In this document: positions 8,301-63,059 of the stretch, piece after piece | How positions within the stretch are numbered: position 1 is the stretch's first letter | Layout of the letters: every line of letters begins with the position of its first letter | Assembly (NCBI GenBank): GCA_963971285.1 | Contig: OZ020256.1 | Span: 8,372,541-8,436,540 of the forward strand | Length of the DNA stretch: 64,000 nucleotides | Source of the DNA: Astropecten irregularis | Lineage: Eukaryota; Echinodermata; Asteroidea; Paxillosida; Astropectinidae | Direction: 5' to 3' | Made by a program: the position numbers and the translations under genes | Notes under the pieces: model-generated | Database searches by the model: none | Seen by the model: the letters and a program-made list of their open reading frames with translations, nothing else | What the model was told of the DNA's origin: nothing

Positions 8301-8949
8301 GAACTAGACATTGTGGTTGTGGGAACAACCACTAGGTGTTCGGAGTCTCATTTCGTAGTGCACTTTTATGTGAACATATGTTGGAACGTATGTGATCAAT
8401 CGTCCCTCATAATAATGGCATATTGGAATACACTTAAACTGTGGGACTGAACAAATACTGATCATGCTGTACATGTACACTGACTGATGGAGAATATGGC
8501 GTCACCTTTAAATATATATATAACATTGTCTGGACAATAACTTCCGGTTAGTTCATCACAAGCAACTGAACATTTACAGACGTCATTGAATGCATACGAT
8601 GTAAATATTTTGCAATTTTCACTGATGTACGTCATGTATTACTGAGTAAACAGTATTTGAATAATTACGTCCTTGTCCCCTTTAAAAGAGCATAACTTCC
8701 GGTTGGATGACGTAACAGATTTCAAACTTCACAAACATGTTAAGATGTTTTAGTGCTTCACACTCACCAAATTTGGCGGAAATCCGCTGTTTACTTTTGG
8801 ATTACGTAATCACTGTATATCTTGAATCCACCGTAGAGGGCGCTATACAGCTCGTATGACGTCATCTTTTATATTTTCTGAAAGGCCAAGACCTCCTCTA
8901 TCTTTTACCCATATGAGGTTTTTTGTGCCCAAATCCTTCCGTTTTCGAG

Positions 8950-11327
8950 TTATTTTGAGTCAAACTTCAACTTCCGGTAACACCGGAAGTGAAGGTCATT
9001 TGTACACAACACTGAATATGTTAATTGTTGACATTCACGTGTTCAGTAACATATGTCAATATCAAAATCATAGGTCATGTGGTTCTCAAGTTATAAAGCA
9101 CCAAATTTTTTCCTAAAAACGCGTGTAATTTGATACCCGATGACGTCATCATGACGTCAATCTTCTAAATACAACTTGGCATCATGACCGAAGTTCCCAC
9201 CAAGTTTCAAGTCATTATCTTGTAACTATCATCAAGAAGTCTTGCAGACAAGTTTGGGAAGAAGGAAAATAAAAAAAAGAAAAAAAAAAACTCGAACAAT
9301 AACAATAGGTGTTCGGCTTGAACCCGAACACCTAAAAAGAAACTCTAACAATAACAAAACTATTACAAACATATAAAACAAAAACACAACTTACATTGTT
9401 AATTGTTTGGGCCTTATAGTGATCGCAATTTACACTTGAAAATTTGCAGAAATCATCGCATGTGTACAATGTAAACAATTTGCAATTTGCACTGATGTAC
9501 GTCATGTAATTACTGAATAAACAGTATTTGAATAATTACATCATGTTTCCTTTAAAAACGCATAACTTCCGGTTGAATGACGTCACAGATTTTAAACTTC
9601 GCACATATGTCAAAGTGCATTAGTGCTTTAAACTCACTAAATTTGGCAGAAATCCGTTGTTTACTTTTGGATTACGTAATCACTGTATATCTTTAATCCA
9701 CCGTAGAGGGCGCTATACAGCCCGTATGACGTCATCGTTTATATTTTCTGAAAGCCTAAGACCTACTCTATCTTTTTGCCAAGCAATTGTATGTGCCCAA
9801 AACCTTTCCGATTTTGAGTTATTTTGAGTCAAACTTCAACTTCCGGTAACACCGGAAGTGAAGGTCATTTGTACACAACATTGAATATATTAATTGTTCA
9901 GATTCACGTGGTGAGTAACATATGTCAATATCAAAATCGTAGGTCATGTGGTTCTCAAGTTACAGAGCACCAAAGTTTTTCCTAAAAACGCGTGTAATTT
10001 GATACCCGATGACGTCATCATGACGTCAATCTTCTAAATACAACTTGGCATCATGACCAAAGTTCCCACCAAGTTTCATGTCAATATCTTGTAACTGTCA
10101 TATAGAAGTCCTGCAGACAAGTTTGGGAAGAAAAAAAATGGAGAAAAAAAAAAAAAAACTAGACATTGTGGTTGTGGGAACAACCACTAGGTGTTCGGGG
10201 TCTCATTTCGTAGTGGAAATGTTAGTGAACGTATGTTGGAACGTACAGTATGTGATCAATCGTCCCCCATTCAATGGCATATATTAAAATACACTTCAAC
10301 TGCGTGACTCAGCAAAATTAATACATGTACCACATGTACTGTTTATGCTGATTGCAGTATTCGTACACTATGACTGATACCGTATAATGACATCACCTTT
10401 AATATTGTATGGACAATAACTTCCGGTTAGTTCTTCACAACCAACTGAACATTTTCAGAAGTCATTGAATGCATACGATATAAATATATTGCAATTTTCA
10501 ATGACGTGCGTCATGTAATTATCGAGTAAACAGTATTTGAATAATGACGTCATCTTTCCTTTAAAAGCGCATAACTTCCGGTTGCATGACGTCACAAATT
10601 TCAAACTTCACACACATGTCGAAGTTCATTAGTAGTTCACAGTCACCAAATTTGGCGGAAATCCGTTGTTTACTTTTGGATTACTTTATCACTGTATATC
10701 TTTAATCCACCGTAGAGGGCGCTATACAACCCGTATGACGTCATCGTTTATATTTTCTGAAAGCCCAAGACCTTGTCTATCTTTGAACCATTGAGGTTTT
10801 TTTTGCCTAAATCCTTCCGTTTTCGAGTTATTTTGAGTCAAACTTCAACTTCCGGTAACACCGGAAGTGAAGGTCATTTGTACACAATACTGAATATATT
10901 AATTGTTCAGATTTACGTGTTGAGTAACATATGTCAATATCAAAATCGTAGGTCATGTGGTTCACAAGTTATAGAACACCAAAGTTTTTCCTAAAAACGC
11001 GTGTAATTTGATACCTGATGACGTCATCATGACGTCAATCTTCTAAATACAACTTGGCATCATGACCGAAGTTCCCACCAAGTTTCAAGTCAATATCTTG
11101 TAACCGTCATATAGAAGTCCTGCGGACAAATTTGGGAAGAAAAAAAATGGAAAAAAAAAAAACTAGACTTTGTGGTTGTGGGAACAACCACTAGGTGTTC
11201 GGGGTCTCAGTTTCGTATTGGAAGTGTTATGAATGTTTGATGGAACGCATGTATGGCATATTGAAATACACTTAAACTGTGTGACTGAGCAAATACTGAT
11301 CATGCTGATTGCACAGTGTATTCGTAC
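8950..11327 (+). repeat. Segmental duplication block, copy 1 (left flank of the 12.2-kb element)
   Basis: Nearly identical to about 25,515-27,891 at a constant offset of 16,563 bp, with only scattered differences, for example near 9960 versus 26525. It ends exactly at the insertion point of the 12.2-kb element. The paralogue continues without interruption through the empty site. Confidence 0.88.
11324..11327. repeat. Target-site duplication GTAC, left
   Basis: GTAC directly precedes the AGATCTGAACG terminus; the second copy is at 23544-23547. The uninterrupted paralogue at 27888-27891 has a single GTAC. Confidence 0.9.
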
Positions 11328-11464
11328 AGATCTGAACGAAACAAACTAGACTCGCGCGTGAGGTGCGCGGAGGAAAAAAGTTAAATTATTAGTAGCTAGG
11401 GAGCGGGTGGCTAGCGCGCATTAGCGCGCGGGCTTTATTTTCTTTATAAAAAGCGGCCGAAATA
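11328..11464 (+). repeat. Left terminal inverted repeat of the 12.2-kb element
   Basis: Identical in reverse complement to 23,407-23,543. It runs from the AGATCT terminus through a CG-rich stretch of GCGCG words into the first 80-bp repeat. The lack of visible divergence implies recent insertion or arm homogenisation. Confidence 0.92.
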
Positions 11465-11790
11465 CTTAACACACAGGGCAGTCCCACGCACTCCACGCAC
11501 CTAGCGCGCGGGCTTTATTTTCTTTAAAAAAGCGGCCGCAATACTAAACACACAGGGCAGTCCCACGCGCTCCACGCACCTAGCGCGCGGGCTTTATTTT
11601 CTTTATAAAAAGCGGCCGAAATACTTAACACACAGGGCAGTCCCACGCACTCCACGCACCTAGCGCGCGGGCTTTATTTTCTTTATAAAAAGCGGCCCGA
11701 TACTTCACACACACAGAGCAGTCCCACGCACTCCACGCACCTAGCGCGCGGGCTTTATTTTCTTTATAAAAAGCGGCCACAATACTTCAC
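11422..11790 (+). repeat. 80-bp subterminal tandem repeats, left arm
   Basis: About 4.6 copies, starting near 11422, 11502, 11581, 11661 and 11742, each beginning TAGCGCGCGGGC and containing AAGCGGCC plus a CCCACGC/CCACGCACC segment. The same repeat, inverted, lies at 23,018-23,460. Iterated subterminal repeats often serve as transposase-binding arrays; that role is inferred here. Confidence 0.92.
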
Positions 11791-11796
11791 TTGTTG

Positions 11797-12639
11797 GATC
11801 GACGAACCAATCAACACCAGCGGAATGCATTGAGCTTTCTGTCTTCTACATGTTGGTCAGCCAATAGGCGACCTGTATAATCACGACAACAACATGCTTG
11901 GAGCGGCATCACAAAGGAATTCTTGTAGCTGCTCGAAACATTGCGACAGTAGTCACGCCCATTCAGACCGTGTTTTTCTCCCAGGCTAGTTTTATTTGAA
12001 ATTTTCTCCCCGACTATAGTTTTATTTTAACTTTTCTCCCCGACAATAGTTTTATTTCAACTTTTCTCCCAGACTATAGTTTTATTACAACTTTCAGTCT
12101 GCCGGAGAGAAGCTCCAGGATCTGAGGAAGCATTTATTTAGATCGTTTATTTCAGATGAATGTAGTAGAATAACTAATTCTTAAAGTTTTAATATTCTCT
12201 ATTTAAATTTTGGTTTGTAAAATTTGTTGACTATGCAATGTGCCGACTCCCGTCGTCATCAACCAAAAGGACAAACGATCATTACTATATTATGAAATAA
12301 TAAACTTCATGCACCTCGTGGTTATTAGATGCGGCACATATGCCTTTTCACACGACATTGAAAATCTCTCAACCATTGAGAAATTCTCTCATGGGTCTTG
12401 ACTCTGGACTTCGGTCAAAATCTCTCAAGGACTCACCGGGGTTCGGCGCAACGCTGGCACGCCTGTCTGGCATTCCAAACTCTTTATTTCAGATCGAGCC
12501 TCGGGCTTATTTCAGTTATTTGTTACACGATTACTATAGCAACACTGTTTCTAAGATACTGGAGCGTACCGTGCCAGTCAAGAGCGCCAAGGCCAACGCA
12601 AGATGAATATATCAATTTATGACTGGTCGTATCTGATCC
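11797..12639 (+). repeat. Composite module, left copy 1, with short 30-bp array
   Basis: Starts CTTGTTGGATCGACGAACC, then about 200 bp of non-repetitive module, then about four 30-bp repeats (11,989-12,105), then about 520 bp leading to the next module. The module recurs at 12,640 (same strand) and, inverted, near 18,680, 20,770 and 21,530. A 70-codon frame at 12398 also appears in the inverted copy at 18694-18915 (minus). It matches no family I know, and its survival probably reflects recent copying. Confidence 0.8.
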
Positions 12640-13915
12640 GCCCTTGTTGGATTGACGAACCAATCAACACCAGCGGAATGGATTGAGCTTTCTGTCATAA
12701 TAATAGGCCTACATGTTGGTCGGCCAATAGGCGACCTGTATAATCACGACAACAACATGCTTGGAGCGGCATCACAAAGGATTTCTTGTAGCTGCACGAA
12801 ACATTGCGGCAGTAATCACGCCCAGTCAACCGTGTTTTTCTCACAGGCTAGTTTTATTTTATCTTTTCTCCCCGACTATAGTTTTATTTTAACTTTTCTC
12901 CCGGACTTTATTTCAACTTTTCTCCCAGACTGTAGTTTTATTTCAACTTTTCTCCCAGACTGTATTATAGTTTTATTTCATCTTTTCTCCCAGACTATAG
13001 TTTTATTTTAACTTTTCTCCCAGACTATAGTTTTATTTTAACTTTTCTCCCAGACTTTAGTTTTATTTCAACTTTTCTCCCAGACTATAGTTTTATTTCA
13101 ACTTTTCTCCCCGACTATGTTTTATTTCAACTTTTCTCCAAGACTATAGTTTAATTTCAACTTTTCTCCCAGACTACAGTTTTATTTTAACTTTTCTCCC
13201 AGACTATAGTTCTATTTCAACTTTTCTCCCCGACTATAGTTTTATTTTAACTTTTCTCCCAGACTGTAGTTTTATTTCAACTTTTCTCCAAGATTTTAGT
13301 TTTATTTCAACTTTTCTCCCAGACTACAGTTTTATTTCAACTTTTCTCCCAGACTATAGTTTTATTTCAACTTTTCTCCCAGACTATAGTTTTATTTCAA
13401 CTTTTCTCCAAGACTATAGTTTTATTTCAACTTTTCTCCCAGACTACAGTTTTATTTTAACGTTTCTCCCAGACTACAGTTTTATTTCAACTTTTCTCCC
13501 AGACTATGGTTTTATTTCAACTTTTCTCCCAGACTGTTGTTTTATTTCAACTTTTCTCCCAGACTGTAGTTTTATTTTCACTTTTCTCCAAGACTATAGT
13601 TTTATTTAAACTTTTCTCCAAGACTAGTTTTATTTCAACTTTTCTCCCAGACTATGATTTTATTACAACTTTTCTCCCAGACTGTAGTTTTATTTCAACT
13701 TTTCTCCCAGACTGTAGTTTTATTTTCACCTTTCTCCAAGACTATAGTTTTATTTAAACTTTTCTCCCAGACTATGATTTTATTACAACTTTTCTCCCAG
13801 ACTAAAATTTTATTGCCACTTTTCTCTCAGACTATAGTTTTATTTCAACTTTTCTCCCAGACTATAATTGTATTGCAACTTTTCTCCCAGATTATAGTTT
13901 TATTACAACTTTCAG
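12640..13915 (+). repeat. Composite module, left copy 2, with long 30-bp minisatellite
   Basis: After the module head (12,640-12,842) come about 35 copies of a 30-bp repeat built on TTTTATTTCAACTTTTCTCC plus CAGACTATAG. The period is a multiple of three, so all frames give artificial 10-residue peptide repeats; these should not be called genes. Each copy contains a pyrimidine tract ending CCCAG, resembling a 3' splice site on the + strand. Confidence 0.93.
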
Positions 13916-14321
13916 TCTGCTGGAGAGAAGCTCCAGGAACTCAGGAAGCATGAATGTCGTAGAATAACTAAGGTTTAATATTCTCTATTTAAATTTTGGT
14001 TTGTAAAATGTGTTGACTATGCAATGTCCCGTCGTCATCAACCAAAAGGACAAGACGATCATTACTATTATGAAATAGTAAACTTCACCTCGTGGTTATA
14101 AAGATGCGGCACATAGCACTTTTCACATGAAATGCAAATCGGCTGTGTTATCTTTAGTTGGGAGAATTGAGATTTTGAGAATTGAGAATTAAGATTCCCA
14201 TATAATAGATTTATTCGTGGAGGAGATATATAATAATAATGCAAACAATTTATTACCCTTCCACCACGCCGATAAGCACTTCACTAAGTGCCTTTGAGCA
14301 CATTTTTATGAAAAAAGCATG

Positions 14322-14409
14322 CGCTAGCTCAGGTGGGATTCGAACTCACGACCTCCTGCTTACTAGTACAGTGCAGATGCCATACCTGCTAGGCACCAAG
14401 CTAGCTGGG
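14322..14409 (-). repeat. tRNA-like sequence in the left arm
   Basis: Read on the minus strand it has an A-box-like TGGTGCCTAGCAGG, a D-stem GTGCC/GGCAT, and a T-arm GTGAG-TTCGAAT-CCCAC with one mismatched pair. AGCTAGC words flank it. The anticodon arm does not fold cleanly, so it is a tRNA-derived (SINE-like) sequence and not a working tRNA gene. An inverted copy lies at 17,503-17,642. Confidence 0.6.
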
Positions 14410-15035
14410 GGTCAGTAGAGTGAATCGCAGAGTGGTGCTTTGTTATATTTTACGTGTGCAAAGGCACTTAATGAACTTATTGAAGTGCTTATCATAATCA
14501 ACGTGGTTTAAGAGCAATGTTGTATGCATTTATATTCCCATACATGTGCAACGTGTACTCAGTATGCAGTAGCATAGTCAAAGGCGCCTGAATAAAAAAT
14601 AGGTCAGCGCGTATTCACGCACAACGCGCTTCTTGGCCAGGTTCAGACCGTACCCTACATACAATGTACATGTTTTATATTGAAATTAGGGTTAGGGTTA
14701 GGTTAATTTAATATAGCTCCATGGGTAGTACATGGTTAAAGGCCTAATGGTGAAGTTCGCGCAGTATAGTAGTTCACACACGACGCGCTAGCGCTGTATA
14801 CACTAGCATCAGACAAGGTAGGCCAGGGCCGGCTGGCAGTAGGGGCCTAGCCTACGGCACACAAAATGTAGGCCTAAATATCATGACACAAAGTGCCTCG
14901 TGTACGTTTCATTTATTTAACTCAAATCCAGTTTTTATTCGGGAAATCAAATCAAATGTTTGATAAAACTTGCTTTATTTTCTCTCTTGAAGTCACGGTC
15001 CATTCATCGATTTACGTCCCAGATTTCGTAAATCC

Positions 15036-16830
15036 TTTTTAATTTTAGGGTAGCAGCGGCCTATGTATGTATCAAATACTTTGGGTAACAAATAATACGC
15101 TGAATTTCAACAAGACTATATTAATCATTATGGATCTTTCAACTTGTATATAAACGACCGAGCAAAACATACCCATACATTTTACGCCAAGATTCTCTCT
15201 AAATAAGAACAATTGCTTGTTAATCAATTATTTTTTCTGATACATGTAGTGATTGGATAAAGTAAAATTCGAACGATTATGTTGTGTTGTGTTCCCCCTT
15301 ATTGTACTAATTACGATCACAGTTAAGGAGTACTTGAGTCAAGATGATTCACCCTGCCTGATACATGTTTAAAAAATAATGCTATCCAACACAAGTAAGC
15401 TTATTCTTGTATGAATTTTCTATGATTGTCAAGTCTGACACACATACCAGAAAACTGCTACAATGTAATACATTTTAGGGCAGGAGAGCAGCTGGTTCTC
15501 CAAAAACAATATAATATAATGTCCACGCGGCTAGCGCGCGGGCGAGTTGTCAGGCCTACGTACTGGTGTAGCCTTCATTCAAGACGCGATAGCGAACAAA
15601 ATGTCTCGCTTACACAAGAAGTGGGTTGTCATCGGCCCGTCGGCTGTTTTGCTTTTCACCACGCTGAAGAAAAGTGACAAACTCATGACCTTATTCCAAT
15701 CCCCGATCAATAAGTAATATTAATTAATTCCTGTGGGATAGACGTTTAAAACATGACGAGACAATTCTCATACAAAAAAAAAAAAAGTGAGTCACCGTAT
15801 AACATTGACAGTCATTATTTTGGAGAAACTATACCACCGGTTCTTCTCATAAACACACTCTCACAAAAGAGGCTACACGGTCTCCGCAAACCTTCCTTAT
15901 TTTACTCCCAACTCTGCTTGGAGTTCTACTTCTTATATTGTTTCATTCAGATTTTAAACAATATTCAATTTGCCTCAGACCGAACAGAGGCGTACAATTG
16001 GAACCTCCTTCCCTTTTATAGGACTGTAGTAATTAACATTTGGATAGGTCTGTTTCGATCCGCTTCTATTTTTATTGGTGGTTGTAATTGCCAACAATTT
16101 TGTCCATGTGCTTATAAGTTTTGGGTCATCGGATCTTCAAAAAATTTCACGGCAATCCTTATGCTTAGAGGGAGTTAGAGCTGCAGTTTTGTAGTGTGCG
16201 AGCACAATATTCTTCATGCACTACATACGTAAGTGTAGGGTAGCCTACCCGTACCGTAGGCGCGGCCTATGCGCAAGGCCTGTGAACACCGGCCCGGTCA
16301 GCTAGCATGCAATGTACTTTACAGTGTACATTTGTGTACATGTTTATGGCGTATGTCGACATACTGTATCCATAGGACATGTACTGAACTTCCCTACAAA
16401 ATAAATGTAATACTATGTTGTCGCGTCTGACCTCTGAACTGTGGCAAGCCGGTAATAAATGACACGGTGCGCTGACCTTTTTGTCAACTGCTGAGCTGAG
16501 CTGAATAAAGTATATGTACACGGTTTAATAAGTATCACTATCGGTTCATAATCATCAATACTTGTACACTGTATATGTACATGTACATACATTACGGTAC
16601 ATATACAAATGAAGGGTATCCTATGGGTCATTAAGTAATGACATTTTCCGATTCACGAATAGGTGTATTTTCATTTGAGATCCAACAGAATAATTTGATA
16701 TTGAAGTATTTACATGAAAAAGTGTGAACAGAAGACAAAAGAGAAATTGGAATTAAAATCGAATTGGGACAAAAACATGAATGTAACTAAATTTCGGTAT
16801 GCATACTGAGCTTATCAATTCATTCATTTT
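15036..16830. other. Central loop of the 12.2-kb element, no recognised gene
   Basis: This is the only part without an inverted partner. The longest frame (15753-16178, 141 codons) starts with a low-complexity lysine stretch and shows no family motif. A coding role is not supported. If the element ever encoded its own enzyme, this is where a remnant would be expected, and I see none. Confidence 0.5.
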
Positions 16831-17502
16831 GATCTGGGACGTAAATCCATGAATGGACCGTGACTTCAAGAGAGAGAATAAAGCAAGTTTTAGCAAACAT
16901 TTGATTTGATTTCCCGAATGAAAACGGGATTTAAGTTAAATAAATGAACCATACACGAGGCACTTTGTGTCATGATATTTAGGCCTACATTTTGTGTGCC
17001 GTAGGCTAGGCCCCTATATACTGCCAGCCGGCCCTGGCCTACCTTGTCTGATGCTAGTGTATACAGCGCTAGCGCGTCGTGTGTGAACTACTATACTGCG
17101 CGTATTTCACCATTAGGCCTTAAACCGTGTACTACCGTAGAGCTATATTAAATTAACCTAACCCTAACCCTAATTTCAATATAAAACATGTACATTGTAT
17201 GTAGGGTACGGTCTGAACCTGGCCAAGAAGCGCGTTGTGCGTGAATACGCGCTGACCTATTTTTTATTCAGGCGCCTTTGACTATGCTACTGCATACTGA
17301 GTACACGTTGTATAATATGCACATGTACACATGTACATGTATGTGTATCATAATATAAATGCAAACAATATATTGCTCTTAAACCACGTTGATAATGATA
17401 AGCACTTCAATAAGTTCATTGCCTTTGAACACGTTAACAAATCAAGCGCTATTTCAATTGAAATAACAAAGCACCACTCTGCGATTCACTCTACTGACCC
17501 CC

Positions 17503-17642
17503 AGCTAGCTTGGTGCCTAGCAGGTATGGCATCTGCACTGTACTAGTAAGCAGGAGGTCGTGAGTTCGAATCCCACCTTATTTATTATTTATTTATTTCT
17601 TTCTTATTTTTTTATTTTTGGTTTACCTGAGCTAGCGCATGC
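17503..17642 (+). repeat. tRNA-like sequence in the right arm, split by AT-rich insert
   Basis: Inverted counterpart of 14,322-14,409 with the same A-box-like and TTCGAAT motifs. About 48 bp of T/A-rich sequence (17,579-17,626) is inserted just after CCCACCT. The left-arm copy lacks this insert, so it postdates arm formation. Confidence 0.6.
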
Positions 17643-18069
17643 TTTTTTCATATAAGCTCAAAGGCACTTAGTGAAGTGCTTATCAGCGTGGTTGAAGGGT
17701 AATAAATTGTTTGCATTATTATATATCTCCTCCGCGGATAAATCTATTACATGTATATGGGAATCTTAATTCTCAATTCTCAAAATCTCAATTCTCCCAA
17801 CTAAAAATAACAAAGCCTGCATTTCATATGAAAAGTCCTATGTCCCGCATCTTAGTAACCACAATGTGAAGTTTACTATTTCATAATAGTAATGATCGTC
17901 TTGTCCTTTTGGTTGATGACGACGGGAGTCGGGACATTGCATGGTCAACAAATTTTACAAACCAAAATTTAAATAGAGATTATTAAAACTCAGTTATTCT
18001 ACGACATTCATCTGTCCTAATAGGCGGGTGAAATAAACGATGTAAATAAATGCTTCCTGAGTTCCTGGA

Positions 18070-18680
18070 GCTTCTCTCCGGCAGACTGAAAGTGTAATAA
18101 TACTATATAGTCTGGGAGAAAAGTTGCAATAAAATTATAGTCTGGGAGAAAAGTTGAAATAAAACTATATTCTTGGAGAAAAGTGAAAATAAAACTATAT
18201 TCTGGGAGAAAAGTGAAAATAAGACTATATTCTGGGAGAAAAGTTGAAATAAAAATAAAGTCTGGGAGAAAAGTTGAAATAAAACTATAGTCTGGGAGAA
18301 AAGTTGAAATAAAACTATAGTCTGGGAGAAAAGTTGAAATAAAACAAGTCTGGGAGAAAAGTTAAAATAAAACTATAGTCTGGGAGAAAGTTTAAATAAA
18401 ACTAATGTCTGGGAGAAAAGTTAAAAAATAAAACTATAGTCGGGGAGAAAAGTTAAAATAAAACTAGCCTGGGAGAAAAACACGGTCTGACTGGGCGTGA
18501 CTACTGTCGCAATGTTTCGAGCAGCTACAAGAAATACTTTGTGATGCCGCTCCAAGCACGTTGTTGTCGTGATTATACAGGTCGCCTATTGGCTGACCAA
18601 CATGTAGGCCTATTATTATGACAGAAAGCTCAATCCATTCCGCTGGTGTTGATTGGTTCGTCAATCCAACAAGGGCGGAA
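18070..18680 (-). repeat. Composite module, right copy 1
   Basis: Inverted module with about 12 copies of the 30-bp repeat (18,100-18,483) and the module head ending near 18,680. The next part holds a 73-codon minus frame (18694-18915), homologous to that at 12398. Same layout as the left-arm modules, opposite orientation. Confidence 0.88.
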
Positions 18681-19169
18681 CAGACACGGCCAGTCATAAA
18701 TTGATATATTCATCTTGCGTTGGCCTTGGCGCTCTTGACTGGCATGGTACGCTCCAGTATCTTAGAAACAGTGTTGCTATAGTAATCGTGTAACAAATAA
18801 CTGAATGCCCGATGCTAGATCTGAAATAAAGAGTTTGGAATGCCAGACAGGCGTGCCAGCGTCGCCCAGAACCCCGGTGAATCCTTGACAGATTTTGACC
18901 GAAGTCCAGAGTCAAGACCCATGAGAGAATTTCTCAATGGTTGAGAGATGTCCTGTGAAAAGGCATTATGTGCCGCATCTTAATAACCACGAGTTGAAGT
19001 TTACTATTTCATCATAGTAATGATCGTTTTGTCCTTTAGGTTGATGACGACGGGACATTAAACCTTAGTTATTATTAAAGAATATTAAACCTTAGTTATT
19101 CTTCGACATTCATCCGTATAGGCGGGTGAAATAAACGATGTAAATGCTTCCTGAGTTCCTGGAGCTTCT

Positions 19170-20780
19170 CTCCGGCAGACTGAAAGTTGCAATAAAATTA
19201 TAGTCTGGGAGAAAAGTTGAAATAAAATTACAGTCTGGGAGAAAAGTTGAAATAAATCTATAGTCTGGGAGAAAAGTTTAAATAAAACAAGTCTGGAGAA
19301 AAGTTGAAATAAACACTATAGTCTGGGAGAAAAGTTGAAATAAAACAGGTCTGGAGAAAAGTTGAAATAAAAATATAGTCTGGGAGAAAAGTTGAAATAA
19401 GACAAGTCTGGAGAAAAGTTGAAATAAAACTATAGTCTGGGAGAAAAGTTAAAATAAAACTATAGTCCGGAGAAAAGTTGAAATAAAACTATAGTCTGGG
19501 AGAAAAGTTGAAATAAAACAAGTCTGGAGAAAAGTTGAAATAAAACTATAGGCTGGGAGAAAAGTTGAAATAAAACAGGTCTTGAGAAAAGTTGAAATAA
19601 AAATATAGTCTGGGAGAAAAGTTGAAATAAAACAAGTCTGGGAGAAAAGTTGAAATAAAACTATAGTCTGGGAGAAAAGTTGAAATAAAACAAGTCTGGA
19701 GAAAAGTTGAAATAAAACTATAGTCTGGGAGAAAAGTTGAAATAAAACTATAGTCTGGGAGAAAAGTTGAAATAAAACAAGTCTGGAGAAAAGTTGAAAT
19801 AAAACTATAGTCTGGGAGAAAAGTTGAAATAAAACAGGTCTTGAGAAAAGTTGAAATAAAAATATAGTCTGGGAGAAAAGTTGAAATAAAACAAGTCTGG
19901 AGAAAAGTTGAAATAAAACTATAGTCTGGGAGAAAAGTTAAAATAAAACTATAGTCCGGAGAAAAGTTGAAATAAAACTATAGTCTGGGAGAAAAGTTGA
20001 AATAAAACAGGTCTTGAGAAAAGTTGAAATAAAAATATAGTCTGGGAGAAAAGTTGAAATAAAACAAGTCTGGGAGAAAAGTTGAAATAAAACTATAGTC
20101 TGGGAGAAAAGTTGAAATAAAACAAGTCTGGGAGAAAAGTTGAAATAAAACTATAGTCTGGGAGAAAAGTTAAAATAAAACTATAGTCCGGAGAAAAGTT
20201 AAAATAAAACTATAGTCTGGGAGAAAAGTTGAAATAAAACAAGTCTGGAGAAAAGTTGAAATTAAACTATAGTCTGGGAGAAAAGTTGAAATAAAACAGG
20301 TCTTGAGAAAAGTTGAAATAAAAATATAGTCTGGGAGAAAAGTTGAAATAAAACAAGTCTGGGAGAAAAGTTGAAATAAAACAAGTCTGGAGAAAAGTTG
20401 AAATAAATCTATAGTCTGGGAGAAAAGTTGAAATAAAACAGGTCTTGAGAAAAGTTGAAATAAAACTATAGTCTGGGAGAAAAGTTGAAATAAAACAAGT
20501 CTGGGAGAAAAGTTGAAATAGTCGGGGAGAAAAGTTAAAATAAAACTAGCCTGGGAGAAAAACACGGTCTGACTGGGCCTGACTACTGCCGCAATGTTTG
20601 GTGCAGCTACAAGAAATCCTTTGTGATGCCGCTCCAAGCATGTTGTTGTCGTGATTATACAGGTCGCCTATTGGCCGACCAACATGTAGGCCTATTATTA
20701 TGACAGAAAAAGCAATCCATTCCGCTGGAGTTGATTGGTTCGTCAATCCAACAAGGCGGATCAGACACGGCCAGTCATAA
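19170..20780 (-). repeat. Composite module, right copy 2, expanded minisatellite
   Basis: About 1.4 kb of inverted minisatellite (19,185-20,563) in which the 30-bp form alternates with a shorter form lacking CTATAG (AACAAGTCTGGAG), giving a higher-order period of about 55-57 bp. This makes up much of the length difference between the arms. The head follows at 20,564-20,780. The segment after it contains a small local duplication at 20,886-20,915 (CCCGATGCTAGATCT twice). Confidence 0.88.
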
Positions 20781-21129
20781 ATTGATATATTCATCTTGCG
20801 TTGGCCTTGGCGCTCTTGACTGGCATGGTACGCTCCAGTATCTTAGAAACAGTGTTGCTATAGTAATCGTGTAACAAATAACTGAATGCCCGATGCTAGA
20901 TCTAGCCCGATGCTAGATCTGAAATAAAGAGTTTGGAATGCCAGACAGGCGTGCCAGCGTCGCCCAGAACCCCGGTGAATCCTTGACAGATTTTGACCGA
21001 AGTCCAGAGTCAAGACCCATGAGAGAATTTCTCAATGGTTGAGAGATTTTTAATGTCCTGTGAAAAGGCATTATGTGCCGCATCTTAATAACTACGAGGT
21101 GAAGTTAACTATTTCATAATAGTAATGAT

Positions 21130-21560
21130 CGTTTTGAGAAAAGTTTAAATAAAAGTATATAGTCTGGGAGAAAGGTTAAAATAAAACTATCTGGGAGAAA
21201 AGTTAAATAAAACTAAAGTCTGAGAGAAAAGTTGAAATAAAACTATAGTCTGGGAGAAAAGTGAAAATAAAACTATAGTCTGGGAGAAAAAAATAAATAA
21301 AACTATAGTCGGGGAGAAAATTTCAAATAAAACTAGCCTGGGAGAAAAACACGGTCTGACTAGGCGTGACTACTGCCGCAATGTTTCATGCAGCTACAAG
21401 AATTCCTCTGTGATGCCGCTCCAAGCACGTCGTCGTCCTGATTATACAGGTCGCCTATTGGCCGACCAACATGTAGAAGACAGAAAGCTCAATCCATTCC
21501 GCTGGTGTTGATTGGTTCGTCGATCCAACAAGGGCGGATCAGATACGACCAGTCATAATA
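21130..21560 (-). repeat. Composite module, right copy 3, short array
   Basis: About seven 30-bp repeats (21,133-21,345), then the module head ending near 21,535. It mirrors the short outermost module of the left arm (11,797-12,120), including the shorter TGTAGAAGACAG variant. Confidence 0.85.
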
Positions 21561-21776
21561 TATTCATCTTGCGTTGGCCTTGGCGCTCTTGACTGGCATG
21601 GTACGCTCCAGTATAAATAGGGGCTCCAACTCCGGATTTTTCGTCGAGGTTTACTCCTGAAGCCTTTTCCAAGAATAGATGAATTGCCGCAAGACAGCGG
21701 AGATTTTCTCCTAGAATTTGATGAGCGGCGTATCAAGGCTTACGACGTCCCATATCAACCTGAAGCAACCGTGGGC

Positions 21777-21880
21777 CCAATTTCATAAAGGTACTTAGCA
21801 CAAAAATTCGCTAAGCACATCTCTGTCATAGTAAAAACAGGATTAACAACCAACATCGCATTTGTAATGTAATCTAATGG
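21777..21880 (+). repeat. Short dispersed repeat (GGGCCCAATTTCATAAAG type)
   Basis: Starts GGGCCCAATTTCATAAAG and continues CTTAGCACAAAAATTCGC. A related start, GGGCTCAATTTCACGAAAG, occurs at 51,497. I associate this family with echinoderm genomes from memory; it needs a database match. Confidence 0.5.
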
Positions 21881-21999
21881 AATGACCTTTGTCCCTTTCT
21901 TAAGTAGGGAAAGCACTACTTTTTTTTTCTTAAGTCAAGGTATTTTTGGATCCAGGGTAGTGTAAGGAACAATCTGACAAGGGGTGTTGATCCGGGTGT

Positions 22000-22020
22000 G
22001 GGGGGGGGGGGGGGGGGGGG
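22000..22020 (+). repeat. Poly-G run
   Basis: Twenty-one consecutive G residues, which could form a G-quadruplex on the + strand. The run length is prone to sequencing or assembly error. C-rich runs follow near 22,286-22,306. Confidence 0.9.
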
Positions 22021-23017
22021 TTAGGTGTGCAGGCGTGCATTATCACCCCCTGCCCAATATTTCGAGGTTAAATGTCATTTAATATTGACAAAACATCTGA
22101 AGTACCAACAAAATAATGAGAAATAGCATGCTTGGAGTGTAGAAAGATTGGTTTTTGTTGTGTCTTCGAAGTGAATTTATACTATTTTTCTTCTGAATAT
22201 CATTTTTAAAAATTTAAATGCACTAAAATGCGACTTATTTTTTAAGTCCCTAGTGTTGGAAGGGGCTATCCTCCTCCCACAACTGCCCCCCCCCCCACCC
22301 CCACCCCGGTCGCTTCGCTCCCTCACGTACGACACAAAATCACCAATCAGCCCCCAATCATGAAAGAAATCGACACCAATGAATCTGACACTGTTGTTTC
22401 ATGCTTGCCCACGAAATTATGATTAAAGCGAATTTTTGGGTGACTTTAAGGGGCTGTCCCCTCCAAACGCATCACACGCGCAACTTAAGAAATCACTTTT
22501 TGCAGCCTTACACATCCCACACTTCAAACCTTTTGCACTCGAAATTATGGTTAAATCCTGCTGGACTAGACTCTCGCACTAATACATTTCGTTCGGACAG
22601 GTTAGTCAAATTTTCAATCCTCTTCGTCCCCAGTTTAAGAAAATCCAGCACGATATCTCAACTTCATTCATACCAGAATGTGGGTTTTATGGGGTTGGTT
22701 GGTGGAACCGGGAACCTTTTAAAAAAAGTGCCTATCGGCAATCATCTAAGAAAATTCGGCAACTGATTAAAATAAAATTGAGAGGGCCGGTTTGACAAAG
22801 ACTAGCCCATTCTTAAGAAGCAAAACCAACCGTATCGGTCTTCTTTTTCGTATATCAATTGGGTGGGGAAGTATCTGGGAGGATTGTGGATTGCCGGGAA
22901 CAGCCGAGAATAAAATAGTTTTCTTTTGTACAGAAAATAATACCCATAACAAGCGGGGAGAATCCGCAGCTGTTCTTAGCTGCTTCGTGGAACAGGCACG
23001 GCATAGGCATTGCTGCC

Positions 23018-23460
23018 AGTTTTATAAAGAAAATAAAGCCCGCGCGCTAGGTGCGTGGAGTGCGTGGGGCTGCTCTGTGTGTGAAGTATTGCGGCCGCTT
23101 TTTATAAAGAAAATAAAGCCCGCGCGCTAGGTGCGTGGAGTGCGTGGGGCTGCTCTGTTTGTGAAGTATTGCGGCCGCTTTTTATAAAGAAAATAAAGCC
23201 CGCGCGCTAGGTGTGTGGAGTGCGTGGGACTGCCCTGTGTGTTAAGTATTGCGGCCGCTTTTTATAAAGAAAATAAAGCCCGCGCGCTAGGTGCGTGGAG
23301 TGCGTGGGGCTGCTCTGTTTGTGAAGTATTGCGGCCGCTTTTTATAAAGAAAATAAAGCCCGCGCGCTAGGTGCGTGGAGTGCGTGGGACTGCCCTGTGT
23401 GTGAAGTATTTCGGCCGCTTTTTATAAAGAAAATAAAGCCCGCGCGCTAATGCGCGCTAG
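23018..23460 (-). repeat. 80-bp subterminal tandem repeats, right arm
   Basis: About 5.5 inverted copies (starts near 23018, 23098, 23178, 23258, 23338, 23418) of the left-arm 80-bp repeat. Copy number differs between arms (5.5 versus 4.6) while sequence is nearly the same, which fits unequal exchange after insertion. Confidence 0.92.
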
Positions 23461-23543
23461 CCACCCGCTCCCTAGCTACTAATAATTTAACTTTTTTCCT
23501 CCGCGCACCTCACGCGCGAGTCTAGTTTGTTTCGTTCAGATCT
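23407..23543 (-). repeat. Right terminal inverted repeat of the 12.2-kb element
   Basis: Exact reverse complement of 11,328-11,464, ending CGTTCAGATCT, followed by GTAC (23544-23547) and then normal satellite sequence. Confidence 0.92.
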
Positions 23544-24517
23544 GTACATGTACACTGACTGATAGCGTATAGAAAATCGTGTCACCTTTAAATAATGTAA
23601 AATTGCCCGGACGATAACTTCCGTTTAGTTAATCACAAACAACTGAAAATTTGGAGAAATCATCGAATGCATACGATGTTAACAATTTGCAATTTGCACT
23701 GATGTACGTCATGTAATTACCGAATAAACAGTATTTGAATAATAACATCATGTTTCCTTTAAAAACGCATAACTTCCGGTTGAATGACGTCACAGATTTC
23801 AAACTTCACACATATGTCAAGATGCCTTAGTGCTTTACACTTACTAAATTTGGCGGAAATCCGTTGTTTAGTTTTGGATTACGTAATCACTGTATATCTT
23901 TAATCCACCGTAGAGGGCGCTATACAGCCCGTATGACGTCATCATTTATATTTTCTGAAAGCTTAAGACCTACTCTATCTTTTACCCAGAGAGGTTTTAT
24001 GTGCCCAAAACCTTCAGTTTTCGAGTTATTTTGAGTCAAACTTAAACTTCCGGTAACACCGGAAGTGAAGGTCATTTGTACACAACACTAAATATGTTAA
24101 TTGTTGAGATTTACGTGTTGAGTAACATATGTCAATATCAAAATCGTAGGTTATGTGGCTCCCAAGTTACAGAGCACCAAAGTTTTTCCTAAAAACGCAT
24201 GTAATTTGATACCCGATGACGTCATCATGACGTCAATCTTCTAAATACAACTTGGCATCATGACCGAAGTTCCCACCAAGTTTCAAGTCAATATCTTGTA
24301 ACTGTCATCAAGAAGTCTTGCGGACAAGTTTGGGAAGAAGGAAAATAAAAAAAAGAAAAAAAAAAACTCGAACAATAACAATAGGTGTTCGGCTTGAACC
24401 CGAACACCTAAAAAACTCGAACAATTACAATAGGTGTTCGGCTTGAACCCGAACACCTAAAAAAACCTCTAACAATAACAATAGGTGTTCGGCTTGAACC
24501 CGAACACCTAAAAAAAA

Positions 24518-25514: not shown

Positions 25515-27891
25515 ATTTTGAGTCAAACTTCAACTTCCGGTAACACCGGAAGTGAAGGTCATTTGTACACAACACTGAATATGTTAATTGTTGACATTCA
25601 CGTGTTCAGTAACATATGTCAATATCAAAATCATAGGTCATGTGGTTCTCAAGTTATAAAGCACCAAATTTTTTCCTAAAAACGCGTGTAATTTGATACC
25701 CGATGACGTCATCATGACGTCAATCTTCTAAATACAACTTGGCATCATGACCGAAGTTCCCACCAAGTTTCAAGTCATTATCTTGTAACTATCATCAAGA
25801 AGTCTTGCAGACAAGTTTGGGAAGAAGGAAAATAAAAAAAAGAAAAAAAAAAACTCGAACAATAACAATAGGTGTTCGGCTTGAACCCGAACACCTAAAA
25901 AGAAACTCTAACAATAACAAAACTATTACAAACATATAAAACAAAAACACAACTTACATTGTTAATTGTTTGGGCCTTATAGTGATCGCAATTTACACTT
26001 GAAAATTTGCAGAAATCATCGCATGTGTACAATGTAAACAATTTGCAATTTGCACTGATGTACGTCATGTAATTACTGAATAAACAGTATTTGAATAATT
26101 ACATCATGTTTCCTTTAAAAACGCATAACTTCCGGTTGAATGACGTCACAGATTTTAAACTTCGCACATATGTCAAAGTGCATTAGTGCTTTAAACTCAC
26201 TAAATTTGGCAGAAATCCGTTGTTTACTTTTGGATTACGTAATCACTGTATATCTTTAATCCACCGTAGAGGGCGCTATACAGCCCGTATGACGTCATCG
26301 TTTATATTTTCTGAAAGCCTAAGACCTACTCTATCTTTTTGCCAAGCAATTGTATGTGCCCAAAACCTTTCCGATTTTGAGTTATTTTGAGTCAAACTTC
26401 AACTTCCGGTAACACCGGAAGTGAAGGTCATTTGTACACAACATTGAATATATTAATTGTTCAGATTCACGTGGTGAGTAACATATGTCAATATCAAAAT
26501 CGTAGGTCATGTGGTTCTCAAGTTATAAGGCACCAAAGTTTTTCCTAAAAACGCGTGTAATTTGATACCCGATGACGTCATCATGACGTCAATCTTCTAA
26601 ATACAACTTGGCATCATGACCAAAGTTCCCACCAAGTTTCATGTCAATATCTTGTAACTGTCATATAGAAGTCCTGCAGACAAGTTTGGGAAGAAAAAAA
26701 ATGGAGAAAAAAAAAAAAAAACTAGACATTGTGGTTGTGGGAACAACCACTAGGTGTTCGGGGTCTCATTTCGTAGTGGAAATGTTAGTGAACGTATGTT
26801 GGAACGTACAGTATGTGATCAATCGTCCCCCATTCAATGGCATATATTAAAATACACTTCAACTGCGTGACTCAGCAAAATTAATACATGTACCACATGT
26901 ACTGTTTATGCTGATTGCAGTATTCGTACACTATGACTGATACCGTATAATGACATCACCTTTAATATTGTATGGACAATAACTTCCGGTTAGTTCTTCA
27001 CAACCAACTGAACATTTTCAGAAGTCATTGAATGCATACGATATAAATATATTGCAATTTTCAATGACGTGCGTCATGTAATTATCGAGTAAACAGTATT
27101 TGAATAATGACGTCATCTTTCCTTTAAAAGCGCATAACTTCCGGTTGCATGACGTCACAAATTTCAAACTTCACACACATGTCGAAGTTCATTAGTAGTT
27201 CACAGTCACCAAATTTGGCGGAAATCCGTTGTTTACTTTTGGATTACTTTATCACTGTATATCTTTAATCCACCGTAGAGGGCGCTATACAACCCGTATG
27301 ACGTCATCGTTTATATTTTCTGAAAGCCCAAGACCTTGTCTATCTTTGAACCATTGAGGTTTTTTTTTGCCTAAATCCTTCCGTTTTCGAGTTATTTTGA
27401 GTCAAACTTCAACTTCCGGTAACACCGGAAGTGAAGGTCATTTGTACACAATACTGAATATATTAATTGTTCAGATTTACGTGTTGAGTAACATATGTCA
27501 ATATCAAAATCGTAGGTCATGTGGTTCACAAGTTATAGAACACCAAAGTTTTTCCTAAAAACGCGTGTAATTTGATACCTGATGACGTCATCATGACGTC
27601 AATCTTCTAAATACAACTTGGCATCATGACCGAAGTTCCCACCAAGTTTCAAGTCAATATCTTGTAACCGTCATATAGAAGTCCTGCGGACAAATTTGGG
27701 AAGAAAAAAAATGGAAAAAAAAAAAACTAGACTTTGTGGTTGTGGGAACAACCACTAGGTGTTCGGGGTCTCAGTTTCGTATTGGAAGTGTTATGAATGT
27801 TTGATGGAACGCATGTATGGCATATTGAAATACACTTAAACTGTGTGACTGAGCAAATACTGATCATGCTGATTGCACAGTGTATTCGTAC
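25515..27891 (+). repeat. Segmental duplication block, copy 2
   Basis: Paralogue of 8,950-11,327 (offset 16,563 bp). It continues past 27,891 into sequence matching the right flank of the 12.2-kb element (23,544-23,690, offset 4,344 bp), so it is the uninterrupted version of the insertion site. Confidence 0.88.
27888..27891. other. Paralogous empty site of the 12.2-kb element
   Basis: A single GTAC sits between sequence identical to the element's left flank (…GTGTATTC) and right flank (ATGTACACTGACTG…). It defines the element's borders and the 4-bp target duplication without ambiguity. Confidence 0.9.
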
Positions 27892-28265
27892 ATGTACACT
27901 GACTGATAGCGTATAGAAAATCGTGTCACCTTTAAATAATGTAAAATTGCCCGGACGATAACTTCCGTTTAGTTAATCACAAACAACTGAAAATTTGGAG
28001 AAATCATCGAATGCATACGATGTTAACAATTTGCAATTTGCATGTAATTTGATACCCGATGACGTCATCATGACGTCAATCTTCTAAATACAACTTCGGC
28101 TTGAACCCGAACACCTAAAAAGAAACTCTAACAATAACAAAACTATTACAAACATATAAAACAAAAACACAACTTACATTGTTAATTGTTTGGGCCTTAT
28201 AGTGATCGCAATTTACACTTGAAAATTTGCAGAAATCATCGCATGTGTACAATGTAAACAATTTG

Positions 28266-42336: not shown

Positions 42337-42439
42337 CCAAGGAATTGAATGTAAACTTTGAATCATCCAGATTTCAACTCGTGCATGGTTGAATTGTCAA
42401 GTCAAATTGTGCATAAATATAGAGTAGTAGGGGATCGAC

Positions 42440-43703
42440 TCACAATGGACTCACAGAGCTGGTCCATAACATGCTTTCGAACCGTAGATTCTTTGTAGAC
42501 CTTTGTGGTAAACGGAGCCGCTGGAGGACACAGAAAAACGGCCTCCCTCAAGGAAGTGTGCTCGCCCCTCTGTTGTTCAACATCTACACAAACGATCAAC
42601 CCATCCAACCAGACACAAGATGCTTCCTCTATGCTGATGACCTCTGCATCACATCGGAGAAGGATACTCATGAGGAAGTCGAAACATCCCTCACCAATGC
42701 CCTGGAAAAGCTTATCCCCTACTACGCCACCAACCACCTCAGAGCTAACCTGGACAAGACACAAATCAGCGCCTTCCAACTCAAGAACAGGGAAGCAAAT
42801 CACCAATTACGGATTAGCTGGTATGGGAAATGGCTGCAGCACACCACCAATCCAGTCTACCTAGGGGTGACACTTGACAGGTCCATCACATACAAGGATC
42901 ATACCATGAAGATTAAGGCAAAAGTGGGATCAAGGAATAATATCCTTAAGAAGCTCACCAACACTAAGTGGGGTGCCGATCCAAAGATAGTCCGTACGAC
43001 AGCACTGGCCTTATGTTACTCAGCTGCAGAGTATGCATCACCAGTCTTGAGTAGATCAGCCCATGCCATCAAGATCGACACTGCCTTGAACACCTCCTGC
43101 CTGGCAATTACTGGCTTCCTGAAGCCTACAAAGGTTGACGACCTGTACCTACTGAGCGGTATAGCCCCCCTAACATCCGGAGGGCAGTTGCATCTCTGAA
43201 GGAAAGGCTGAAACAGGAAACTGACTGTCGCCACCCTCTTTTCAACTATGAGCCATCGAGAAAGAGACTGAAATCTTGGCACAGCTTCATGCACTCCGTA
43301 GAGGCCTTGAACAACAGTCCTGAAAGACAGCGTTCGTCCCTGTGGGCTGAACATCTCTCCCTTTCACCTCATATGGTCCCCATAACAAACCCCAAGGAGG
43401 CCCTACCCCCAGGTGCCAGTGAATCGTGGCCTTTCTGGTCATGCCTCAACCGACTTAGAACTGCTGTCGGCCGTTGCAAAACCAATCTTGCAAAATGGGG
43501 GTACAGCGACACTGAAGAGACCAGCTGCCTGTGCGGAGAAGAGCAGACCTGCAACATCTTCTTGTCTGCTCACTTATGCCAGAGCCATGCACACCTGAGG
43601 ACCTGATGGCACTTACTCCCCCTGCCATGCAATGCACCCAACACTGAAGTGGACTTATCTATTGACTCAGTAACTAGCATAGTGACTCGAAAAGAAGAAG
43701 ACT
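42440..43703 (+). pseudogene. 5'-truncated LINE reverse transcriptase (I/Jockey-like)
   Basis: The 242-codon frame 42471-43199 has reverse transcriptase signatures: LPQGSVLAPLLFNIYTND (catalytic region B), then the YADD active site, then YLGVTLDRS and the thumb-like AEYASPVLSRSAH stretch. Endonuclease and RT finger domains are absent, as in a 5'-truncated insertion. A run of six C near 43,164-43,169, where seven are needed, shifts the frame; coding continues in the next frame through WAEH, a tract with LNRLRTAVGR, and a CLCG…H…C zinc-binding tail, with a second shift near 43,550. The 3' end near 43,703 (CGAAAAGAAGAAG) resembles LINE 3' tails. The clade is judged from motif style only; a dead copy. 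Confidence 0.88.
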
Positions 43704-62098: not shown

Positions 62099-62480
62099 CC
62101 TGTACCAAGGAGAGTTACATACAATCCTGAGTGGCCAAGGTTTGAGCTGTTTGAACTTTCAAATGATCAATGTTTGGACAAATTCAGATTTATTAAAGAT
62201 GACATATTTCGGTTGTCTGAATCGCTAGGTCTTCCCGATAAGATTGTCGTGAAGAATGGGTGTACTTGCAGTTGAGTTGATGCCCTTTGCATGGTTCTGA
62301 GGAGATTTGCCTACCCAAACCGTCTATCAGACTTGGAAGAGTTTTTTGGGAGACCAACATCCACCCTTTCACTGATTATCAAGAGCTCATCAACACCGCA
62401 TTCTATCTCTTGATAATCCATGGCTAGAACCTGCACAACTGCAAATTTATGCCGACTCTATTCACAATAAGGGGGCCCCC

Positions 62481-63059
62481 TTGAAAAACTGTATTGGCTT
62501 TGTGGATGGGACAGTTAGACCAATCTGTAGGCCAACTCGGCATCAGCAAGTTTGTTACAACGGTCACAAAAGAATCCATGCACTGAAGTTTCAGTCTGTG
62601 GTGATACCTTGCGGACTGATTGCTCATCTTTATGGTCCAGTAGAAGGGAGAAGACATGATTGTGCTCTTCTTCGAATGAGCAGACTTATGGAGGAATTCG
62701 AAAGAAGAGACCTGAATGACAGGGATGGTACCCCCTTCACACTTTATGGAGATCCTGCATATCCTGTCAGGCGTTACCTGCTTAGTCCATTCAGAGGGGC
62801 AAACCTAAGAGCGGAGGAACAAGAATTAAACTCCAGAATGTCATCAGTTCGAGAATGCGTGGAGTGGGAGTTCGGGAAGATGATGAAGATGTTTGCATTC
62901 CTTGATTTTCGCAAGAACTTGAAAGTCCTGTTATCCCCACTGGCCAAATACTACCTAGTTGGTGGGCTGCTTACTAATTGCCACACCTGTTTATATGGAA
63001 ACCAGACAAGCAGATACTTCCAGTTGGACCCACCCTCCCTGGAGAACTATCTAGCATGA
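62481..63059 (+). CDS. Harbinger transposase catalytic core, intact 192-codon frame
   Basis: Contains GFVDGTVRPICRPTRHQQ, the block CYNGHKRIHALKFQSV, the conserved GPVEGRRHDCALL, then LYGDPAYPV and RECVEWEFGKM. The catalytic triad is D9 (62,505), D91 (GDPAYP) and probably E128 (VEWE), giving 36 residues between the second D and E, the usual DDE spacing of PIF/Harbinger and HARBI1-type nucleases. The frame is the 3' part of the gene starting at 57,796; the ATG at 62,481 is an internal methionine, not the original start. All three catalytic residues survive, so decay is recent or incomplete. Confidence 0.85.
   Translation: MKNCIGFVDGTVRPICRPTRHQQVCYNGHKRIHALKFQSVVIPCGLIAHLYGPVEGRRHDCALLRMSRLMEEFERRDLNDRDGTPFTLYGDPAYPVRRYLLSPFRGANLRAEEQELNSRMSSVRECVEWEFGKMMKMFAFLDFRKNLKVLLSPLAKYYLVGGLLTNCHTCLYGNQTSRYFQLDPPSLENYLA

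What the first reader, a model, noticed from the sequence alone, without database searches (positions are those of the whole stretch)
11328..23543. A 12.2-kb foldback element with perfect ends, recent, and apparently undescribed
Identical 137-bp inverted ends, multi-kb complex inverted arms, and a clean GTAC duplication mark a mobile unit of unusual size and layout. It has no recognisable protein gene. Foldback TU elements are known from sea urchins, but their repeat lengths and target duplications as I remember them (15-bp outer repeats, 8-bp duplication) differ from the 80-bp repeats and 4-bp duplication here. It may be a new foldback family moved by an unknown enzyme.
Basis: partly seen in the sequence, partly recalled or inferred. 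Interest (0 to 1): 0.82.

Follow-up and report, generated by a model that had tools for sequence, protein, structure and literature searches.

The report
Giant gene-less foldback transposon family
This is a real family of roughly 10 to 12 kb jumping DNA elements in which no gene was recognised; they fold back on themselves and insert at the two-letter site TA, so they are probably moved by an enzyme made elsewhere in the genome.

Summary
The element is real, and it is a family. The same genome holds six complete long copies (10.4-12.2 kb), one near-identical copy cut by an assembly gap, one truncated older copy, a complete 205-bp derivative, and fragments.

The 4-bp GTAC duplication is wrong. 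All 7 two-ended copies read TA|CAGATCTG...CAGATCTG|TA; only the window copy happens to have GTAC on both sides. The unit is window 11327-23544 with a TA duplication. Uninterrupted target sites were found for two copies. One is in this window: at 27591-28042, 452 of the 598 joined flank bases align, all identical.

No coding signal was found by Pfam on 19 of 49 ORFs or by substitution periodicity. A tree without support values suggests that the two arms exchange sequence within lineages.

TA duplication and CAG ends point to a transposase of the IS630/Tc1/mariner type acting in trans. The genome has pogo-type and Tc1-type genes; no matching ends were seen at the 5 of 72 matches whose flanks were read, so the driver is not identified. 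FB, Galileo, Tetris and Tc4 share the layout; size and TA duplication set this family apart.

The parts
11325..11326 (.). left copy of the 2-bp TA target duplication
   Evidence: TA on both sides in 7 of 7 two-ended copies
11327..23544 (.). complete foldback element, window copy (12,218 bp)
   Evidence: ends CAGATCTGAACG / CGTTCAGATCTG in 6 of 6 long copies
11327..11464 (+). left terminal inverted repeat, 138 bp identical to the right end
23407..23544 (-). right terminal inverted repeat
11422..11787 (+). 80-bp tandem repeats, 4.6 copies, left end
23020..23449 (-). 80-bp tandem repeats, 5.4 copies, right end
11987..12094 (+). 30-bp tandem repeat array, 3.6 copies
12095..12835 (+). arm module; inverted partner at 18480-19182 (85.9%, gaps counted); the 45 genome matches listed all lie in family members (40 of 1171 candidates were scored)
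12849..13912 (+). 30-bp tandem repeat array, 35.6 copies
13950..15024 (+). left inner arm; inverted partner 16832-18011 (85.1% with gaps counted; about 96% of bases alike without gaps over the part compared)
15025..16831 (.). unpaired centre, about 1.8 kb, shared by the family (C11 lacks part of it); no domain found in the ORFs searched
16832..18011 (-). right inner arm
18106..18479 (-). 30-bp tandem repeat array, 12.6 copies
18480..19182 (-). right-arm partner of module 12095-12835
19183..20520 (-). 30-bp tandem repeat array, 46.4 copies
20549..21134 (-). second right-arm copy of the module (89.0% to 12273-12848, gaps counted)
21136..21348 (-). 30-bp tandem repeat array, 7.2 copies
21887..22986 (.). 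right-arm stretch holding old nested repeats (22032-22381 and 22384-22567 match many other places); no left-arm partner found in this copy, while C11, C8a and C10 carry parts of it in both arms
23545..23546 (.). right copy of the TA target duplication
27591..28042 (+). paralogous empty insertion site: 452 of the 598 joined flank bases align here, all identical, across the junction

Best explanation
It is a gene-less DNA transposon family that inserts at TA. Shown here: defined ends, a TA target duplication, empty sites, several independent insertions, and a short derivative with the same ends. Inferred: a transposase of the IS630/Tc1/mariner type, encoded elsewhere, binds the outer ends (and perhaps the 80-bp repeats), excises the element and pastes it into TA. 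Also inferred, on weaker evidence: the two arms pair and now and then exchange sequence, which keeps them alike within a lineage and moves or deletes blocks.
For: Family: 17 of 78 matches run from query base 1 to at least base 124; these are 12 ends of six long copies plus five single ends. TA on both sides in 7 of 7 two-ended copies. Empty sites: for the window copy, 452 identical bases at 27591-28042; 5 of the 16 junction-spanning matches printed keep all 43 bases around the junction. For the C10 copy, 5 of 8 matches span all 200 bases of the joined flanks at 95-100%. C30 and C23 share 99.9% of the compared body: 639 bp at 100%, 754 bp at 99.867%, 2888 bp at 99.861%; their 20-bp left flanks differ and only short weak matches link the wider flanks, so they are separate insertions. 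Derivative C1a is 205 bp with both ends and TA, so the body seems not to be needed in cis. Arm exchange: in a tree of 11 inner-arm copies, both arms of C20 and C23 group together, as do those of C8b, and those of C8a with C10. Candidate enzymes exist: 61 DDE_1 (pogo-type) and 11 DDE_3 (Tc1-type) matches; one pogo-type pair is 99.4% identical over 3.3 kb with TA beside its ends.
Against: No transposase gene with these ends was found. Flanks were read at 5 of the 72 transposase matches: the ends visible in two families (TCGTCCGGTC/TCCTGCAGTC and CACTGGC) are different, and no clear ends were seen at the other two loci. A sixth match near a family member (C1:13591273) is not linked to it in the sequence read. 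A length of 10-12 kb is large for such enzymes (recalled; PMC3688188 passages say efficiency usually falls with length). The 12-base motif shared by the end and the 80-bp unit is only weakly beyond chance (36 of 1000 shuffles). Arm exchange: the tree has no support values; the C8a right end is nearer to the C10 ends (1 difference) than to its own left end (3), and the two C23 ends are no nearer to each other than to other copies. An apparent flip of the C8b centre is better read as the whole copy lying in the other orientation and is no evidence.
Confidence: 0.72

Rival explanations
1. The driver is a TA-duplicating enzyme of another superfamily (for example an ISL2EU-like or Mirage-like transposase) or a kind not yet described. 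The rest of the picture stays the same.
For: No Tc1/pogo element with matching ends was found in what was read; no other animal genome was available. That ISL2EU and Mirage duplicate 2 bp is recalled, not tested.
Against: Tc1- and pogo-type genes are present, and one pogo-type pair looks recent. Ends that begin CAG next to TA fit that group as recalled.
Confidence: 0.2
2. The element is autonomous or recently was: the centre or an arm encodes a fast-evolving or intron-split transposase that the searches missed.
For: Most of the centre (15025-16831) is kept in the long copies and has short ORFs shared between copies, such as an 83-aa frame. 30 of 49 ORFs were not searched.
Against: 19 of the 49 ORFs of 60 aa or more had no Pfam match over its cut-off. 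Variable sites show no 3-base periodicity: highest chi-square 6.06 in 64 windows, against a median maximum of 8.9 for random sites. The longest frame (142 aa) is broken in several other copies.
Confidence: 0.06
3. The inverted arms are an assembly artefact.
For: Long inverted repeats are a known hazard for assembly (recalled), and the C30 copy has a 200-base run of N. Raw reads could not be inspected.
Against: Six long copies lie in different flanks on five large contigs with the same plan. Inner arms of one copy differ by indels and by 1.5-4% of bases (82-90% identity with gaps counted in C20, C23 and C8b; 96-98.5% without gaps in C20, C23, C8a, C10 and C8b), which a mirror-image artefact would not show.
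Confidence: 0.02

Closest known systems
Tetris, Drosophila virilis foldback (PMC4079207, passages seen)
   Same: No conserved ORF, long inverted ends with internal tandem repeats, variable middle, no autonomous copy found, shares its ends with a short element (DAIBAM)
   Different: Duplication 8-10 bp (its authors suggest Mutator); ends up to 1,735 bp; here the duplication is TA and the whole element is 10-12 kb
Galileo, P superfamily, Drosophila (PMC3573991 and PMC3688188, passages seen)
   Same: Long internally repetitive ends, tandem repeats that vary in number, recruitment of inner sequence into the ends, extra transposase sites in the repeats
   Different: 7-bp duplication, a known transposase, ends of at most about 1.26 kb in D. 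mojavensis
Tc4, Caenorhabditis elegans fold-back element of the Tc1/mariner group (PMC11071193, passages seen; original paper only cited there)
   Same: Fold-back structure in the TcMar group; very short target duplication
   Different: Duplicates TNA within CTNAG; here TA is duplicated, and 1 of 7 target sites happens to hold CTNAG. Tc4 is about 1.6 kb (recalled)
Tc6, C. elegans (recalled only)
   Same: Recalled as a gene-less fold-back with TA duplication
   Different: Recalled as about 1.6 kb, without the multi-level arms seen here
TU elements, sea urchin (recalled; the passages of PMC4079207 name foldbacks in the sea urchin)
   Same: Foldback layout with repeats in the outer domain
   Different: Recalled 8-bp duplication and 15-bp outer repeats; here TA and 80-bp repeats

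Membership tests
Foldback-type elements (structural class) | Long inverted ends that contain tandem repeats, around a middle domain | tested here: met
   arms of several kb, 80-bp and 30-bp arrays, 1.8-kb centre
Foldback-type elements (structural class) | Target duplication shows transposition, multiple copies | tested here: met
IS630/Tc1/mariner superfamily | TA target duplication | tested here: met
   7 of 7 two-ended copies; empty sites for 2 copies
IS630/Tc1/mariner superfamily | DDE/D transposase of that superfamily encoded by the element or by a partner with the same ends | tested here: inconclusive
   None in 19 of 49 ORFs of the window copy; none seen beside other ends; flanks read at only 5 of 72 transposase matches
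Mutator-type foldbacks (Tetris; FB and Tm1 recalled) | 8-10 bp target duplication | tested here: not met
Galileo / P superfamily | 7-8 bp target duplication | tested here: not met
Tc4 clade | Insertion into CTNAG with TNA duplication | tested here: not met
   CTNAG at 1 of 7 target sites (C23, as CTTAG), and there too only TA is doubled
Sea urchin TU elements | 8-bp duplication (recalled) | tested here: not met
Sea urchin TU elements | Sequence similarity to TU | not testable with these tools
   No TU sequence and no animal sequence collection at hand

The most novel reading that the evidence does not exclude
A distinct lineage of giant TA-inserting foldback elements whose long arms are kept alike by repeated exchange, moved by a TA-inserting transposase not yet described, with arm pairing itself contributing to its mobility or copying. 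(Lowered from 0.10 when the flipped centre was withdrawn.)
Probability: 0.08. Interest if true: 0.65.

Novelty: new variant of a known kind. Interest (0 to 1): 0.35.

Why it matters
[quoted passage not shown] A 10-12 kb gene-less family with a TA duplication suggests that the foldback plan arose again on a TA-inserting system at unusual size. Because some copies are recent, with empty sites and a 205-bp derivative that kept only the ends, the enzyme and the need for the long arms can be tested. Galileo and DAIBAM, which share this build, are linked to chromosome inversions (PMC4079207, passages).

Tried and rejected
GTAC as a 4-bp duplication: rejected, it matches in 1 of 7 two-ended copies.

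Flipped centre in copy C8b as proof of recombination between arms: withdrawn. With arrays masked, C8b lines up with all five other long copies better when the whole copy is reversed (for C20, 6503 against 4776 identical bases in a collinear chain), so it simply lies in the other orientation.

The Tc1-type gene at C1:13591180-13592271 as part of copy C1b: rejected, because no element sequence lies between it and the centre of C1b, whose left arm is missing.

C14:11321462 (exact 18-base end) as an autonomous copy: rejected. About 10.5 kb inward shows no second end and no other element sequence.

C11:20271375, C18, C19, C22, C25 and C29 ends: short or old fragments; no second family end found by BLAST in the stretches read. 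C27 looks like a short old derivative. A search with the old C25 end brought only known members and short pieces.

Mariner family PF01359: no match, but the search's own controls were silent, so it shows nothing.

Motif GGTGCG[CT]GGAG in the ends and in the 80-bp units as transposase sites: kept only as a suggestion. It occurs 0 times in 51,782 bases of the window outside the element, but 36 of 1000 shuffles share as much with the end, and the motif was picked after looking. The C8b ends carry a variant that the pattern misses.

Species name: one paper search by assembly size gave only an aphid paper. Not pursued, host left unnamed.
Full report
OBSERVATION. The two ends of the reported unit are identical over 137 of 137 bases in inverted orientation. 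Adding the flanking C and G, which are invariant in the family, makes 138 bases and moves the boundaries to 11327-23544. Between the ends lie 80-bp repeats at both outer sides, five 30-bp arrays of 3.6 to 46.4 copies, and arm modules that pair in inverted order. Examples (element coordinates plus 11326; identities count gaps): 13950-15024 with 16832-18011 at 85.1%, and 12095-12835 with 18480-19182 at 85.9%. Most of that difference is indels: the inner arms of C20 agree at 96.2% of compared bases without gaps. The centre, 15025-16831, is unpaired.

FAMILY. The outer 137 bases were searched in the window's own assembly (475.7 Mb, 168 contigs). There were 78 matches, of which 17 run from query base 1 to at least base 124. 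Twelve are the two ends of six long copies: C20 (the window), C11, C8a, C23, C10 and C8b, of 12,218, 11,363, 11,625, 10,420, 11,543 and 10,357 bp. The other five are C30 (99.9% like C23, cut by a 200-base run of N), C1b (older, without a left arm), C1a (a complete 205-bp derivative), and fragments in C25 and C22. An 18-base pattern of TA plus the end has 18 exact hits; the only two outside these members are in C14 and C27. With up to 2 mismatches there are 45 hits against 34 for the reversed control, so most of the mismatched hits are probably chance.

TARGET DUPLICATION. In the seven two-ended copies (six long, and C1a) the left flank ends in TA followed by C, and the right flank begins with TA preceded by G. 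TA is doubled in 7 of 7; a matching 4-mer occurs in 1 of 7, the window copy. Joining the flanks and keeping one TA finds uninterrupted sites. For the window copy (598 joined bases), 16 matches across the junction were printed from the local repeat array; 5 keep all 43 bases around the junction, others have a mismatch or indels there, and the best aligns 452 bases, all identical, at 27591-28042. For the C10 copy, 5 of 8 genome matches span all 200 bases at 95-100%. The C10 flanks do not match as a 4-mer, so its empty sites fit TA and not GTAC. Among the fetched DNA no empty site was seen for the other four copies; the genome was not searched for them.

AGE AND LINEAGES. With the 30-bp arrays masked, the window copy differs from C23 at 186 of 8,429 aligned positions and from the other four at 352-442 of 8,305-8,658 (these are minima, since repeated modules may align to each other). 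C30 and C23 differ at about 5 of 4,281 compared positions (arrays left out) and have different left flanks. In the segment at 21887-22986, C20 and C23 are 97.8% alike and both are 92.3-92.8% like C11, C8a and C10, which are 98.7-99.7% like one another.

ARM EXCHANGE. In a tree of 11 inner-arm copies (one C11 arm did not pass the length filter; no support values), left and right arms of the same lineage group together: C20 with C23, C8b with itself, C8a with C10. The outer 1.7 kb of the two C8b arms are 97.8% alike, and its outermost 95 bases are 97.9% alike between ends but 93.7-94.7% like other copies. Against this: the two C23 ends are no nearer to each other than to other copies, the C8a right end is nearer to the C10 ends than to its own left end, and within C20/C23 left arms group with left and right with right. 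So exchange is occasional at most. An apparent flip of the C8b centre was withdrawn.

CODING. Pfam found nothing over its cut-off in 19 of the 49 stop-to-stop ORFs of 60 aa or more listed in and beside the element; the other 30, many of them in the 30-bp arrays, were not searched. Variable sites show no 3-base rhythm: highest chi-square 6.06 in 64 overlapping windows with at least 30 variable sites, random median maximum 8.9. Windows with fewer sites were dropped, so power is limited. Listed genome matches longer than 100 bases to the centre lie only in family members (40 of 553 candidates scored). The module at 12095-12835 has 45 listed matches, all in family members (40 of 1171 scored). The stretch 21887-22986 also matches many other places, as nested old repeats (40 of 1593 scored).

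DRIVER. The genome has 61 DDE_1 matches and 11 DDE_3 matches. The mariner model PF01359 gave nothing, but its controls were silent too. Flanks were read around 5 of these 72. A pogo-type pair is 99.4% identical over 3.3 kb with ends TCGTCCGGTC/TCCTGCAGTC next to TA. A Tc1-type locus in C23 has CACTGGC ends next to TA. The two remaining loci (C15, C10) gave no clear ends. None matches CAGATCTGAACG.

MECHANISM. Shown: insertion at TA, defined ends, several insertions, and a short derivative with little more than the ends. Inferred: movement in trans by a TA-inserting transposase, most likely IS630/Tc1/mariner-type, and occasional exchange between paired arms. The 80-bp repeats may hold extra enzyme sites, as shown for Galileo (PMC3688188, passages), but the shared motif here is weak evidence.

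COMPARISON. Layout and lack of a known partner are like Tetris, and layout is like Galileo; duplication length excludes both as family. Tc4 shows that fold-back forms exist in the Tc1/mariner group, with TNA duplication in CTNAG, which is not met here. The review of giant transposons has one foldback passage and no Tc1 or mariner mention (PMC6431247, passages). Six paper searches on foldbacks (listings only, apart from the papers named) showed no TA-duplicating foldback of this size; Repbase and Dfam were not available, so 'undescribed' is not proven.

VERDICT. A real, recent foldback family with TA duplication and no recognised gene: a new variant of a known kind, with its enzyme not identified.

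Noticed in passing
window 1-41000, element left out: Dense local array of direct duplications, for example 3.2 kb at 96.3% and 2.2 kb at 98.7% (coordinates with the element removed); the foldback element sits in one unit and other units are empty.
   Followed up: partly
window 42423-43199 (+): 258-aa ORF that reads like a non-LTR reverse transcriptase (recognised by eye, no search).
   Followed up: no
window 62376-63059 (+): 227-aa ORF that reads like a Harbinger-type transposase (recognised by eye, no search).
   Followed up: no
L042 and L043 (C18:20319501-20325000, C19:14788501-14794000): Two copies of a pogo-type element, 99.4% identical over 3.3 kb, TA beside the ends, 625-aa frame: apparently recent.
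   Followed up: partly
window 21887-22567: In several other places 21887-21979 directly adjoins 22384-22567, so the stretch between looks like an old insertion of another repeat nested inside the arm.
   Followed up: partly
L022, C1:15568253-15568457: 205-bp complete derivative of the family with both ends and TA: a candidate start of a short-element (MITE-like) series.
   Followed up: partly
G000 C10:9829894-9830022: Two inverted pieces of the end close together, perhaps another short derivative; not fetched.
   Followed up: no
L040, C1:13591180-13592271: Tc1-type transposase frames about 6 kb from the truncated copy C1b, not connected to it in the sequence read.
   Followed up: yes
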